From the NCBI GenBank assembly GCA_024278835.1, contig JAJRSK010000074.1:1-33715 (forward strand): a stretch of DNA of 33,715 nt. Direction: 5' to 3'. Each line of letters begins with the position of its first letter. The first letter of the stretch is position 1. Positions 17,561-29,628 of the stretch are shown piece by piece. Below the pieces are notes generated by a model that searched no databases, was not told where the DNA came from, and saw only the letters and a program-made list of their open reading frames with translations. Both the position numbers and the translations under genes were made by a program. The stretch comes from Campylobacterales bacterium (GTDB taxonomy: Bacteria; Campylobacterota; Campylobacteria; Campylobacterales; QNZT01).

Positions 17561-17602
17561 GTCTATCATGATAAAATCCCTCAAAATTTAATAAGGTTAT
17601 AC

Positions 17603-23829: not shown

Positions 23830-25356
23830 ATGAAAAATGAGACAAAGAATTTTCTAGATAACCTTTCTATTGCTAAAAAGACAGCGATGTTAACGGTTGT
23901 CGTCACGATTGGTACACTTCTCATTGGGATTGTGGCACATTTTGCCGTTACTAGCATGAAAGAAAATTATAATGCATTTTACAATAAGCGTTTTACTACC
24001 ATCCAAACACTTGATAAAGTGCGTGAGATTTATACGACTGACATACAAAGAACGCTATTAAATGTTCAAAATGAAAAGTTAGATACCGATAAAACCACAG
24101 CGTATATAAAAGCGAGTAGAGAAGAGGCACTTGCAAACTGGAAAAACTTTCTCTCTCTTTATTACAACAGTATGGATAAAAGTGACATAGAACAACAAAA
24201 TATCGTGGATGCACTACAAGGGCATATCTTGCGGGTCAACAAGTTCTTAGAAGATTCGATGCTTGTGCTTAATAAAGAGGGTAAAGAGACTTTTTATGAG
24301 ATAGCATACACACCACTTTTAAAAAGTATCAATCTTCTTGACATCAAGATATCCAATCTTGTTGCATATCATTTCAGACTTGCCTCGCAAGAGAAAGAGA
24401 AGATATCTCAAAAGTATAGTGATACACAATGGATGGTTATCATGATAACAACATTGGTGCTTTTCCTTTCTCTTTATTTTACATTTATGATTGCCAAAAA
24501 TTTTCAAAGGCTATTACAAAATCTTTCACGAATCGTAGAAAAGAGAAATAAAGAAAATGAAAAGATGCAATTGGAACTTGAAAAACGCGTCAATGAAGCA
24601 GTAGAAAGAGCAAGAGAAAAAGATCACATCATGTATCAGCACGCACGCTTGGCTTCTATGGGTGAGATGATTGGAAACATCGCCCACCAATGGAGACAAC
24701 CGCTCAATGCCCTGACACTCCTCATCCAAAGCTTTGGTACTAAGAGCCTCTCTGGGAAACTTAATCAAACGTTTATAGATAAACAAGTCAATGAAGGGAT
24801 GCGTTTGGCTGTCTCTATGTCTGATACTATCGAGGATTTTAGAAACTTTTTCTCTCCTTCTAAGGAAAAAGAACACTTCAATCTCAGCAAATCTATCCAC
24901 GACACACTAGAGATGAGTTCCTTTTTCTGTAAAGACGAAAACATCGATATCCAAGTGCATTGTGGTGAAAATATCACTATTTATGGCTATTCAAATGAGT
25001 TTTCACAAGTCATCCTTAACTTCATCAACAATGCTAGAGACAACTTTAAACATAGACAGATGCATGAAGATAAAAAGATAGAAATTATTGTCAAAGAGAT
25101 GCACGGAAAACATCCAGCAGTCAATATCTATTTTGCAGATAATGGTGGTGGGATAGAACAGCACATCATAGATAGGGTTTTTGAGCCCTACTTCACTACC
25201 AAACACAAGGCAACGGGTACGGGGATAGGGCTTTATATGTCTAAGCAGATTATCGAAGCGCAGATGAGTGGCGAAGTGACGGTGAGAAATGCACAAAAAG
25301 AGTTTGATGACAAAGCATATATGTGTGCGGAGTTTAAGATAGCGATACCGGTTTAA
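23830..25356 (+). CDS. Membrane sensor histidine kinase
   Basis: A 508-residue kinase. TM1 is at about 18-40 and TM2 at about 201-222, enclosing a ~160-residue helical periplasmic sensor region that resembles four-helix-bundle sensors. A coiled coil follows (about 225-270), then the H-box GNIAHQWRQPLNAL with H286, a form common in Campylobacterota. The ATPase domain has the N-box NFINNARDN (about 397-405), DNGGG (437-441) and GTGIGLYMSKQ. The ligand is unknown. A seven-codon out-of-frame ORF (23810-23833) overlaps the start by four bases, which may couple translation. The nearest regulator gene is at 28348, beyond the accessory pair. Confidence 0.9.
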   Translation: MKNETKNFLDNLSIAKKTAMLTVVVTIGTLLIGIVAHFAVTSMKENYNAFYNKRFTTIQTLDKVREIYTTDIQRTLLNVQNEKLDTDKTTAYIKASREEALANWKNFLSLYYNSMDKSDIEQQNIVDALQGHILRVNKFLEDSMLVLNKEGKETFYEIAYTPLLKSINLLDIKISNLVAYHFRLASQEKEKISQKYSDTQWMVIMITTLVLFLSLYFTFMIAKNFQRLLQNLSRIVEKRNKENEKMQLELEKRVNEAVERAREKDHIMYQHARLASMGEMIGNIAHQWRQPLNALTLLIQSFGTKSLSGKLNQTFIDKQVNEGMRLAVSMSDTIEDFRNFFSPSKEKEHFNLSKSIHDTLEMSSFFCKDENIDIQVHCGENITIYGYSNEFSQVILNFINNARDNFKHRQMHEDKKIEIIVKEMHGKHPAVNIYFADNGGGIEQHIIDRVFEPYFTTKHKATGTGIGLYMSKQIIEAQMSGEVTVRNAQKEFDDKAYMCAEFKIAIPV

Positions 25357-25557: not shown

Positions 25558-26859
25558 GTGAGAATAATGTTACTAGTATTTATGCTATTTAGTTTGTCTA
25601 TTTCATTGGATGCCAAGGAGATAGATATAACAAAGTCTAAAGGAACCAACCAAGAGGTAATAACCTCACTATATCCAGAACCTATGGATGATGCAGTAAA
25701 AAGAGGTGCAAATATCAAAATTACTTTTGATAAAAAGCTAAAAAGAGAGAAGATTCAAAAAAGTATCAAACTAAAATACTTAGGATGTAAACAAGAAAAA
25801 AAAGAGAAATTAAAACAGAGACGAGATCGTAAACTCAAAAGATGCAACACAAAATTTAAACACAATAAACATCTAAAAAAATCATGCAAACAGTGTGTAA
25901 GAGAGGTATTTAGATATCAAAAAAGAAGAAACTGTAAACCAAGAGTCATACAAGGCAAAATAAGATATCTAAAAAATAGAGATATACTAAGGTTTAATCC
26001 AAACAGAAAACTTCGTCTAGGTTTTTACCAAGTAACAGTAAAAGGGCTAAAAACAACAGATAATAAAAAAATCAAAAAGATAAGTTACAGATTTGAAGTA
26101 TCTAAAGATAGAATCGAAACTATCACACTTTCACAAACAGATATAAAGCTACAAGAGCAAGAGAGTACAAAACTAACACTACAAGCTACCTATAAAGATG
26201 GCAAAACAGAAGACATCACAAAAGATATAAACTGGATTATAGGAGATACAACACTTGTATCCATAGATGCGGATGGAAACTTAAAAGCTCTAAAAGAGGG
26301 AGAGACACTACTCCAAGCTGAATACCATGGAAAAGTAAGTGATGAAGTAAAAGTAACTATTACTAAAAAAGCAGAAGTGATAAATGGTTACACCCTTCCA
26401 CCTGAACCAGATTCAAAAATAAACAATGCAACTTTGCTTGGTGTGGATGTGAATAATAATGGGGTGAGGGATGATGTAGAGAGGTATATCATCAAACGGT
26501 TTGCAAAAGACCCAGAATTTCCTAAAACTAAAACTGCAATAGCTTTGCAATATGCTTGGGCAGACCAGAAAATTATAGAAAATCCAACTAAAGATAGTAT
26601 GCAATATGAGGATAATGCATGTAATTGTGAATATTATTGGTATGACAAAAAAACAGCAGATATGGGGGGCTATGATAGTATCCAGTGGACAATAAAACAT
26701 AAAATTTATGATAATGCACTTAAAGAGAAGATTTTCAATACAAAAGAGAGAATTAAGCAATATATTAAATACAATTCTGCGTTAAGTGGTGGTATCTATC
26801 AAGGTAGCTTGCACTCTATTAACAATTGTCAAACCAATATTGATGTGATAGGAGAATAA
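25558..26859 (+). CDS. Secreted Ig-like (SbsA/BIG2) protein with basic cysteine-containing insert
   Basis: A 433-residue exported protein starting at GTG; AAGGAGA lies six bases upstream, better spaced for GTG 25558 than for ATG 25567. A signal peptide (IMLLVFMLFSLSISLDA) is followed by an SbsA-type Ig-like domain (about 30-180), interrupted by a Lys/Arg-rich stretch with four or more cysteines at about 78-138. A BIG2-like domain covers about 185-275 (TLSQTDIKLQEQESTKLTLQ). The C-terminal ~150 residues begin GYTLPPEPDS and contain DVNNNGVRDDVERYI, a calcium-loop-like motif. Its coding strand is far more A-rich than its neighbours and has no TATCATGATA, suggesting recent acquisition. It ends one base before the hydrolase gene, so the two form an operon. 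Function unknown; a surface or secreted partner of the hydrolase is a guess. Confidence 0.7.
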   Translation: MRIMLLVFMLFSLSISLDAKEIDITKSKGTNQEVITSLYPEPMDDAVKRGANIKITFDKKLKREKIQKSIKLKYLGCKQEKKEKLKQRRDRKLKRCNTKFKHNKHLKKSCKQCVREVFRYQKRRNCKPRVIQGKIRYLKNRDILRFNPNRKLRLGFYQVTVKGLKTTDNKKIKKISYRFEVSKDRIETITLSQTDIKLQEQESTKLTLQATYKDGKTEDITKDINWIIGDTTLVSIDADGNLKALKEGETLLQAEYHGKVSDEVKVTITKKAEVINGYTLPPEPDSKINNATLLGVDVNNNGVRDDVERYIIKRFAKDPEFPKTKTAIALQYAWADQKIIENPTKDSMQYEDNACNCEYYWYDKKTADMGGYDSIQWTIKHKIYDNALKEKIFNTKERIKQYIKYNSALSGGIYQGSLHSINNCQTNIDVIGE

Positions 26860-26860
26860 G

Positions 26861-27814
26861 ATGAAAAAGATAATAATACTTTTTACGATTTTAGTCTCAT
26901 TATTTACAGGACTCCAAGCTGGAACTGATATCTATTTTGGAAATGGAGTTTGGAATGATAAAAGAGGTGCAAACTATGGTAAAGATGCATTGGCCAGATT
27001 AATTAAAAAAGATGTTCTGAAAAATAAACCAGAGCTAATAGCCAAATACACACCAATAAAACTGTCTTTTAATTGGACTGGGGCTTCTTCAACAGGGGAT
27101 ATTGATAAGATGTTTGACGTTGTTGAGACTTTTTATCAACTTCGAGATAGTGGACAACTTGATGAAAGTACACTTTTTCAAGTGCTAGATGCGTTTTTAT
27201 CAAGTGACCCATTGCGAGATATTCTTATGGAGAAGCTTGATGATATCATTTCTGAGAATGTTAGAGCTGTTTCTGGTGCTAATCTTGTAGAAATGATAAC
27301 TCAATATGAATCTGAAACACTTGAAAATGGGGATAAAGTACTACTAGTAGCACATTCTCAGGGAAATCTATTTGGAAACGAAGTCTTTGATAATTTACTT
27401 AGCGATGCGTATCGTAAGAGATTTAATATGGTATCGGTAGGAACACCTGCAAACAGGGTAACAAATAGTGTTGAACCTTATACTACTTTAGTGTGTGACC
27501 AAGTGATAAATAGTAATAAATTATTGCCAAGTGGCATTCCTTTTCACTTAGAAGGCAAGATGGGTTGTACGGGTGCAGAGGAGTCTTCTGGGCATGAATT
27601 TGAAAGAAGTTATTTGGAAAATAAATGGTCTTATGATGAGATTGTGGAAAATATCAAAAAGAAATTAAGAGAAAGTGTTTATCTACAAGTTTCAAGATCT
27701 AGTGCTTCAATCTCTAGTGTGAAGCTATATATGACAGATGGTACAAAAAGTATTCTCGTTTATCCTAGAGATGTAGATGTGCATGGCAGTGGTGAAGGTG
27801 GTAGTGTAAAATAA
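26861..27814 (+). CDS. Secreted alpha/beta-hydrolase (lipase-like), ends at an in-frame TAA
   Basis: A 317-residue exported hydrolase (signal MKKIIILFTILVSLFTGLQA). The nucleophile elbow is LLVAHSQGN, an A-H-S-Q-G variant of GxSxG with S166. SVGTPANR and SGHEFERSYL (H245) fit the rest of a serine-hydrolase triad. The frame stops at TAA 27812-27814, but the same frame continues for 91 sense codons to TAG at 28088-28090, followed by a hairpin. The original protein was therefore probably ~408 residues, with the catalytic residues all before the stop. The truncated form may still be active. It starts two bases after the Ig-like gene. Substrate unknown; lipid ester is likely from the fold. Confidence 0.75.
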   Translation: MKKIIILFTILVSLFTGLQAGTDIYFGNGVWNDKRGANYGKDALARLIKKDVLKNKPELIAKYTPIKLSFNWTGASSTGDIDKMFDVVETFYQLRDSGQLDESTLFQVLDAFLSSDPLRDILMEKLDDIISENVRAVSGANLVEMITQYESETLENGDKVLLVAHSQGNLFGNEVFDNLLSDAYRKRFNMVSVGTPANRVTNSVEPYTTLVCDQVINSNKLLPSGIPFHLEGKMGCTGAEESSGHEFERSYLENKWSYDEIVENIKKKLRESVYLQVSRSSASISSVKLYMTDGTKSILVYPRDVDVHGSGEGGSVK

Positions 27815-28090
27815 TTTTCAGTTCGAGATGGTTCTAGCGGAACACCATCAAATACCTATGATAGATACCTTAGCAGTAAATGGGCAGGTACTATTTATGA
27901 AGGGTATTTTAATGATATGGTTTTATCAACTATGCCATTTGATGGATTTACAGAAGGGTTTTGGTGCAATAATACCCATGGTGGAAACTGTAAAAGAGAT
28001 GATAATTTTCCTACTTATTATATCTTGTCTAATAATAGTGACTACCTAAATAATATTTATCAAGAAAACTTTTTGTCTGTTAATCAGTAG
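27815..28090 (+). pseudogene. In-frame C-terminal extension of the hydrolase beyond a TAA
   Basis: Read directly on from the TAA, in the same frame, there are 91 codons without a stop: FSVRDGSSGTPSNTYDRYLS near the start, GFWCNNTHGGNCKRDDNFPT in the middle and NFLSVNQ at the end. Composition is protein-like (paired Cys, aromatic residues, Asn and Gly), and it ends just before a strong hairpin. No start codon with an RBS opens it, so it is most likely the severed end of the hydrolase, or is reached by readthrough. Confidence 0.7.
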
Positions 28091-28111: not shown

Positions 28112-28136
28112 GGAAAGAGATAAATAATCTCTTTCC
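28112..28136 (+). terminator. Hairpin terminator after the accessory pair
   Basis: GGAAAGAGAT (28112-28121) and ATCTCTTTCC (28127-28136) form a perfect 10-bp stem with a five-base loop. It starts 22 bases after TAG 28090. There is no T-run after it. Its position suggests that the transcript was built to end after 28090, not 27814. Confidence 0.7.
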
Positions 28137-28347: not shown

Positions 28348-29001
28348 GTGGATTTAAATAGTTTAAAAAACTTAGAGTTGTTGTACATCGAGGATGATGT
28401 AGATGTTATGAATCAGACCAAGCTTATCTTGGATGATTTTGTCAAGGTTGTGCATACTGCAGTCAATGGTGAAGAGGGTTTAGAAAAAGCACTTTCTCTT
28501 CCTATTGATATCATCGTCGTGGATATCAACATGCCAAAGATGAATGGTATCGACATGATAAAGACGCTCAAAAACGAGCATGAGAAAAATATCCCATGTA
28601 TCATCACCACAGCGCATACCGATACAGAGTATTTGATAGATGCTATCAATCTCAAAGTAGACGGCTATATCATCAAGCCTATCAATATCAAAGACCTTAT
28701 CAACTCGATTTATACTGTGATGCTTCCAATCATCCAGAAAAAAGAGATAGAGGGTTGTGCGCATGTGGTTGAGTCACTCTCAGCTCTTGTGGGTGGTAAG
28801 AAGATAGAGATACTCAAGTTCATCATCGAAAATCTCGATGAAGAGAAGATTTTCCATGGCTCATACCAAGATATCATGGAAGCACTCGATGTTTCTAAAC
28901 CAACGGTGGTCAATATGTTTAAACAACTCATCGGCGCAGGCATCTTAGAAAAAATCAAAAACAAAGTCTATAAGTTCAAACGAACAGACTTGATAGCATA
29001 G
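28348..29001 (+). CDS. Response regulator with REC and winged-helix DNA-binding domains
   Basis: A 217-residue regulator with a GTG start; AAAGGAG lies six bases upstream. The REC domain (about 8-125) has the acidic pair in YIEDD, phospho-acceptor D59 in VVDINMPKMNG, T/S in ITTAH and K110 in GYIIKP. The C-terminal ~75 residues (SYQDIMEALDVSKPTVVNMF) form a winged-helix of MarR/ArsR-like type, unlike OmpR or NarL outputs. It may be the partner of the kinase at 23830, now separated from it by the accessory pair. The next gene starts 12 bp after its stop. Confidence 0.88.
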   Translation: MDLNSLKNLELLYIEDDVDVMNQTKLILDDFVKVVHTAVNGEEGLEKALSLPIDIIVVDINMPKMNGIDMIKTLKNEHEKNIPCIITTAHTDTEYLIDAINLKVDGYIIKPINIKDLINSIYTVMLPIIQKKEIEGCAHVVESLSALVGGKKIEILKFIIENLDEEKIFHGSYQDIMEALDVSKPTVVNMFKQLIGAGILEKIKNKVYKFKRTDLIA

Positions 29002-29013
29002 AGGATGGATATC

Positions 29014-29628
29014 ATGAGCGCGAAAGCCTGCCCTTGGGGTATAAAAGTATTATTGTTAAGTAGTGTATTGATATTTGCCACGGCTTGTACGGCAGAGACG
29101 AAGTCTGCACCAACAGCAACAGAGAAAAAAACAGAAGTCAAAGCACCAAGCGATAAATCACATCCGATAGTGGTGCTTGAAACCAATCAAGGAGATATAG
29201 AGTTAGAACTTTTTCCAGAAGTGGCACCAAAAGCGGTTAAAAACTTTATAGAACTCTCAAAAAAGGGTTATTATGATGGTATCATTTTCCATCGTGTTAT
29301 CAAGCACTTTATGATTCAGGGTGGAGATCCTACTGGTACTGGTATGGGTGGAGAATCTATCTATGGAGGGGTATTTGATAATGAATACGCAGCAAATGTT
29401 GTCTTTGATAAGCCTGGTATACTTGCTATGGCAAATGCTGGTCCAAACACTAATGGTAGTCAATTTTTCATCACAACTGTAGCGACACCACACTTAAATG
29501 GTGGCTATACTATTTTTGGTAAAGTAGTCAATGGTTACAATGTCGTCAAAAAGATAGAAAATACTAAGACTGCTCGTGGTGATAGACCTGTTGAAAAACA
29601 AGTTATCAATAAGGCCCACTTAAAGTAA
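29014..29628 (+). CDS. Cyclophilin-type peptidyl-prolyl isomerase, probable lipoprotein
   Basis: Catalyses proline cis-trans isomerisation, probably in the periplasm. From M4 (29014) the protein is 204 residues; the ATG at 29005 directly abuts GAGG and is badly spaced, whereas 29014 is nine bases after it. The N-terminus has a hydrophobic stretch and a plausible but non-ideal lipobox (FATAC), then a Thr/Lys-rich linker. The cyclophilin domain has the catalytic Arg in [19 protein letters not shown], then NGSQFFIT and [10 protein letters not shown]. It probably shares a transcript with the response regulator. Confidence 0.88.

What the first reader, a model, noticed from the sequence alone, without database searches (positions are those of the whole stretch)
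26861..28090. In-frame TAA splits a secreted hydrolase from a coherent 91-codon tail
The frame of the lipase-like gene continues without interruption from 27815 to TAG 28088, with protein-like composition, and a strong hairpin follows only after 28090. All predicted catalytic residues (S166, H245) precede the TAA. It is either a recent nonsense mutation, a sequencing error, or programmed readthrough that gives two protein forms, with and without a C-terminal domain.
Basis: seen in the sequence. Interest (0 to 1): 0.6.

Follow-up and report, generated by a model that had tools for sequence, protein, structure and literature searches.

The report
Hydrolase gene cut short by stop
A secreted enzyme gene in a Campylobacterales bacterium carries a premature stop codon inside its C-terminal accessory domain, most likely an ordinary nonsense mutation, in a patchily distributed two-gene module whose copies are often broken.

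Summary
The 317-codon gene ends in TAA (27812-27814) and its frame runs on for 91 codons to TAG 28088-28090. The tail is real protein: it aligns with the uninterrupted C-termini of two related hydrolases (L029, 500 aa; L037, 463 aa; E about 1e-14), and third codon positions differ more than first and second. The C-terminal domain starts before the TAA (about residue 272), so the stop lies inside a domain, not between two.

Programmed readthrough is poorly supported. The relatives have no stop there, the context is UAA-U, RNA structure after it is no stronger than in shuffles, and none of the 33 tRNAs found is a suppressor.

The gene is the second of a conserved pair (A-B), absent between the kinase and response-regulator genes in eight relatives. 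The second pair in the same genome is broken several times, and several relatives carry stopped or fragmentary B copies. The best reading is a recent nonsense mutation that removed the accessory domain and left the hydrolase domain whole; sequencing error or strain variation cannot be excluded.

The ordinary finding scores low. The unnamed A-B family, with tandem lipoprotein A genes beside variable hydrolases, is the more interesting lead.

The parts
25558..26859 (+). gene A: exported protein, two Ig-like domains plus a conserved helical C-terminal domain with the motif DxNxNGxRDD
   Evidence: Big_2 E 6e-6; model pLDDT 89; directly upstream of B in 18 of 18 contig loci
26861..27814 (+). gene B as it would be translated, 317 aa, start codon 1 nt after the stop of gene A
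26861..27667 (+). signal peptide and alpha/beta-hydrolase domain; inferred S166 (27356-27358), D213 (27497-27499), H245 (27593-27595)
   Evidence: HSQG motif and conserved D and H; weak Foldseek match to cutinases
27677..28087 (+). C-terminal accessory domain, interrupted by the TAA
   Evidence: profile match spanning the stop; alignment with L029 and L037; the part before the stop matches L037 collinearly, 1 of 3000 shuffles as good
27812..27814 (+). in-frame TAA, followed by T
27815..28090 (+). 91-codon tail ending in TAG
28112..28136 (+). hairpin after the ancestral end of the gene, 10-pair stem without T-run
23830..25356 (+). histidine kinase gene; left flank of the A-B module
   Evidence: HATPase_c; adjacent to the response-regulator gene in eight relatives
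28348..29001 (+). response-regulator gene; right flank. About 165 bp upstream of it is shared with relatives that lack A-B
   Evidence: Response_reg

Best explanation
Gene B encodes an exported serine hydrolase with a C-terminal accessory domain. A point change made an in-frame TAA inside that domain, recently enough that the remaining 91 codons are still open and recognisable. The cell should make a 317-residue protein: the complete hydrolase domain plus a meaningless stub of about 45 residues, without the accessory domain. B belongs to a patchily distributed A-B pair that was probably acquired between two regulatory genes, in a family in which broken copies are common, so loss of this domain fits ordinary gene decay. 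Shown: the stop, the homology across it, the pair, the flanks, the broken second copy. Inferred: that the change was recent, that the truncated enzyme folds, and that the hydrolase is active.
For: Uninterrupted domain in L029 and L037. Stop inside the domain. Tail evolves like coding sequence. The second A-B pair in the genome has a TAG in A, a frameshift in B and a TAA after the hydrolase domain. Seven of 75 family places listed from 399 genomes have stops within the hydrolase domain. Closest relative lives with the hydrolase domain alone, 269 aa. UAA followed by U is an efficient stop in E. coli (PMC5289835). No suppressor tRNA.
Against: Only one stop and no frameshift in 138 codons, so decay rests on a single base; no reads and no second strain were available. 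Some of the weak family places with stops may be chance matches.
Confidence: 0.77

Rival explanations
1. The TAA is a base-call or assembly error, or one strain's variant in a mixed assembly; the organism has an intact full-length gene.
For: A single base decides the reading; the genome is in 77 contigs and no reads are available; the frame is otherwise clean.
Against: Nothing else in this gene or in gene A looks damaged; errors that make a stop in exactly one gene are rare; the second copy of the module is broken by several independent lesions.
Confidence: 0.14
2. Programmed readthrough of the TAA makes a minor long form with the accessory domain.
For: The tail is open and conserved at protein level; a published survey argues that some in-frame stops in bacteria are read through (PMC7918605).
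Against: Homologues with the tail have no stop there; UAA followed by U; structure after the stop is unremarkable, z -1.05; no suppressor tRNA; the stop is inside a domain; the TAA in the C67 copy is at another place.
Confidence: 0.05
3. The tail is translated separately from an internal start as a small second protein.
For: There is an in-frame ATG about 35 codons into the tail (read).
Against: That start would omit the best conserved stretch (YDRY to F-x-D); no ORF of 60 aa or more in this frame; homologues have one fused protein.
Confidence: 0.02

Closest known systems
Nonsense-interrupted bacterial genes (pseudogenes or truncated alleles)
   Same: single in-frame stop, intact homologues, recognisable remainder
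   Different: the predicted catalytic domain is complete, so the product may still be active
Hydrolase relatives L029 and L037 (Nitratiruptor and Campylobacteraceae MAGs)
   Same: same hydrolase domain, same C-terminal domain, same upstream gene A
   Different: uninterrupted, and with an extra linker of about 100 aa that the window gene lacks
Cutinase / lipase class of alpha/beta-hydrolases
   Same: G/H-S-x-G nucleophile, predicted Ser-Asp-His order, best Foldseek neighbours
   Different: E no better than 8e-3, no Pfam family reached, helical insertions; substrate unknown
Phospholipase effectors with periplasmic lipoprotein immunity proteins (Tle-Tli, from memory)
   Same: hydrolase gene beside a small lipoprotein gene, partner genes in tandem arrays
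   Different: B has its own signal peptide; no sequence link was tested or found; toxicity unknown

Membership tests
Nonsense-interrupted gene | homologues read through the position without a stop | tested here: met
   L029 and L037 continuous
Nonsense-interrupted gene | the stop removes part of a conserved domain | tested here: met
   domain starts before the stop
Nonsense-interrupted gene | stop present in the living strain and tail not made | not testable with these tools
   no reads or proteomics
Programmed stop-codon readthrough | stop conserved at the same place in homologues | tested here: not met
   absent in L029 and L037
Programmed stop-codon readthrough | leaky context or stimulatory RNA structure | tested here: not met
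   UAA-U; z -1.05 for the next 90 nt
Programmed stop-codon readthrough | decoding tRNA | tested here: not met
   33 tRNAs, none with a stop-reading anticodon
alpha/beta-hydrolase, cutinase/lipase-like | nucleophile elbow and Ser-Asp-His residues | tested here: met
   HSQG and D213 invariant, H245 nearly so
alpha/beta-hydrolase, cutinase/lipase-like | fold match | tested here: inconclusive
   best E 7.8e-3, prob 0.97 to cutinase
alpha/beta-hydrolase, cutinase/lipase-like | curated family score | tested here: not met
   no Pfam or NCBIfam family for the window protein
Exported effector with lipoprotein immunity partner | linked partner gene, often in tandem | tested here: met
   18 of 18 loci paired; four A genes in a row at L149
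Exported effector with lipoprotein immunity partner | B toxic to neighbouring cells and neutralised by A | not testable with these tools
   needs an experiment

The most novel reading that the evidence does not exclude
A-B is an unnamed exported-hydrolase/partner module, possibly effector and lipoprotein immunity, spread patchily through Campylobacterales and on Cupriavidus plasmids; the hydrolase is constant while its attached regions are exchanged, and the window gene is a copy that has just lost its attached domain.
Probability: 0.3. Interest if true: 0.5.

Novelty: new member of a known kind. Interest (0 to 1): 0.2.

Why it matters
For the finding as given, little: it is one truncated gene, useful mainly as a warning that an intact-looking tail after a stop is normally a young nonsense change. 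The module around it matters more: a recurrent pair of exported hydrolase and Ig-like or lipoprotein partner with no name in Pfam, NCBIfam or PADLOC, in tandem arrangements that resemble effector-immunity loci and can be tested in a laboratory strain.

Tried and rejected
A viral-contig hit for the tail domain (L045) covers 41 residues only and its sequence looks unrelated. Codon score as proof of a coding tail: ambiguous. Scanning 711 kb of the genome for same-frame runs after stops gave mostly neighbouring genes in the same frame, so it gives no base rate; the window case at 17561 is simply the next gene. Stop-codon reassignment: TAA is the commonest stop of long ORFs here, 235 of 439. Orphan displaced tail: rejected because the domain starts in frame before the stop. 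The AlphaFold model of the read-through protein is uninformative for the tail (pLDDT below 50 from residue 272).

Full report
Observation. The frame opened by ATG 26861 ends in TAA 27812-27814, and after that codon it stays open for 91 codons to TAG 28088-28090. The hairpin lies at 28112-28136; it is strong (z -3.5) but has no T-run.

Is the tail more than chance? Base composition and codon usage alone do not settle it: open shuffles are rare (0.045%) but the codon score is low. Relatives settle it. The tail matches the C-terminal ends of two hydrolases of the same family, L029 (Nitratiruptor MAG, 500 aa) and L037 (Campylobacteraceae MAG, 463 aa), with E of 5e-15 and 2e-14. Both read through without a stop. 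Between the window tail and either relative, third codon positions differ in 57-59% of codons against 36-45% for first and second, as expected of a sequence that was translated for most of its history.

Where the stop falls. A profile of the C-terminal domain matches the window from 27677 to 28087 with the TAA inside; that profile includes the window sequence itself, so the independent test is the next one. The segment before the stop, residues 273-290, is collinear with L037 and scores better than all but 1 of 3000 shuffles; against L029 the support is weaker (64 of 3000). So the stop cuts a domain. The closest relative of the hydrolase domain (60% identity; L003 and L027 are the same gene) stops at residue 269, before that domain. 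The hydrolase domain can therefore stand alone in nature, and the truncated product may still fold.

Readthrough. Features expected of programmed readthrough were tested and not found: no conserved stop in homologues, UAA followed by U (a context with reduced readthrough in E. coli, PMC5289835, abstract seen), no unusual RNA structure in the next 90 nt, and no tRNA with a stop-reading anticodon among 33. Basal leakage cannot be excluded. PMC7918605 argues that in-frame stops in prokaryotic genes are often read through but that many such cases are short-lived.

Setting. B starts 1 nt after gene A, which has two Ig-like domains and a C-terminal domain with the motif DxNxNGxRDD. In all 18 loci found in the genome collection a gene A copy lies just upstream of B; where both ends were worked out in Campylobacterota loci the gap is 1 to 12 nt. 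In eight relatives (G003, G005, G006, G010, G012, G014, G015, G019) the kinase and response-regulator genes that flank the pair here are neighbours with no A-B between them, and about 165 bp upstream of the regulator is shared with them. The pair was most likely inserted in this lineage.

Decay. The same genome has a second A-B pair on contig C67 with a TAG in A, a frameshift in the N-terminal part of B and a TAA after the hydrolase domain. L033 has a TAG at codon 37 of B. In 399 genomes of the order, 38 carry the hydrolase domain, and 7 of the 75 listed places contain stops within it; several more are fragments. Some of the weakest may be chance.

Interpretation. A recent nonsense change in a copy of a turnover-prone module explains everything seen without a special mechanism. 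An assembly error or strain variant is the main alternative and would need reads.

The family. Neither gene has a specific family in Pfam, NCBIfam or PADLOC; gene A has only its generic Ig-like match. The hydrolase model resembles cutinases weakly. Open frames of B range from about 270 codons to about 2,500. A copies often start with lipoprotein-like signals and occur in arrays: four in a row at L149, A-A-B at L152, B followed by two A genes at L150. On Cupriavidus plasmids the same order A then B is found, with overlapping genes and a similar motif in A. This looks like an exported enzyme with a partner or immunity gene; that is inference from arrangement only.

Noticed in passing
L149 5904-8216; L150 3993-6975; L152 2375-5476: Gene A homologues with lipoprotein-like signals occur in tandem arrays next to, or without, the hydrolase gene, as immunity genes do.
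   Followed up: partly
L143 3274-5233 and L144 2898-5035 (Cupriavidus plasmids): The A-B pair exists outside Campylobacterota, on plasmids typed as conjugative or mobilizable, with A and B overlapping by about 10 nt.
   Followed up: partly
L094 (contig C67 of the same genome): Second A-B pair with stops and a frameshift; a clear pseudogene pair.
   Followed up: yes
window 29010-29044: A stretch of about 34 bp at the 5' end of the cyclophilin-type isomerase gene (29005-29628) recurs elsewhere in this genome and in a relative; it codes for the first residues, which fall outside the homologues' aligned part.
   Followed up: partly
L154 4798-6537: The hydrolase domain sits at the C-terminus of a protein with RCC1-like repeats, unlike the N-terminal position in the window gene.
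   Followed up: no
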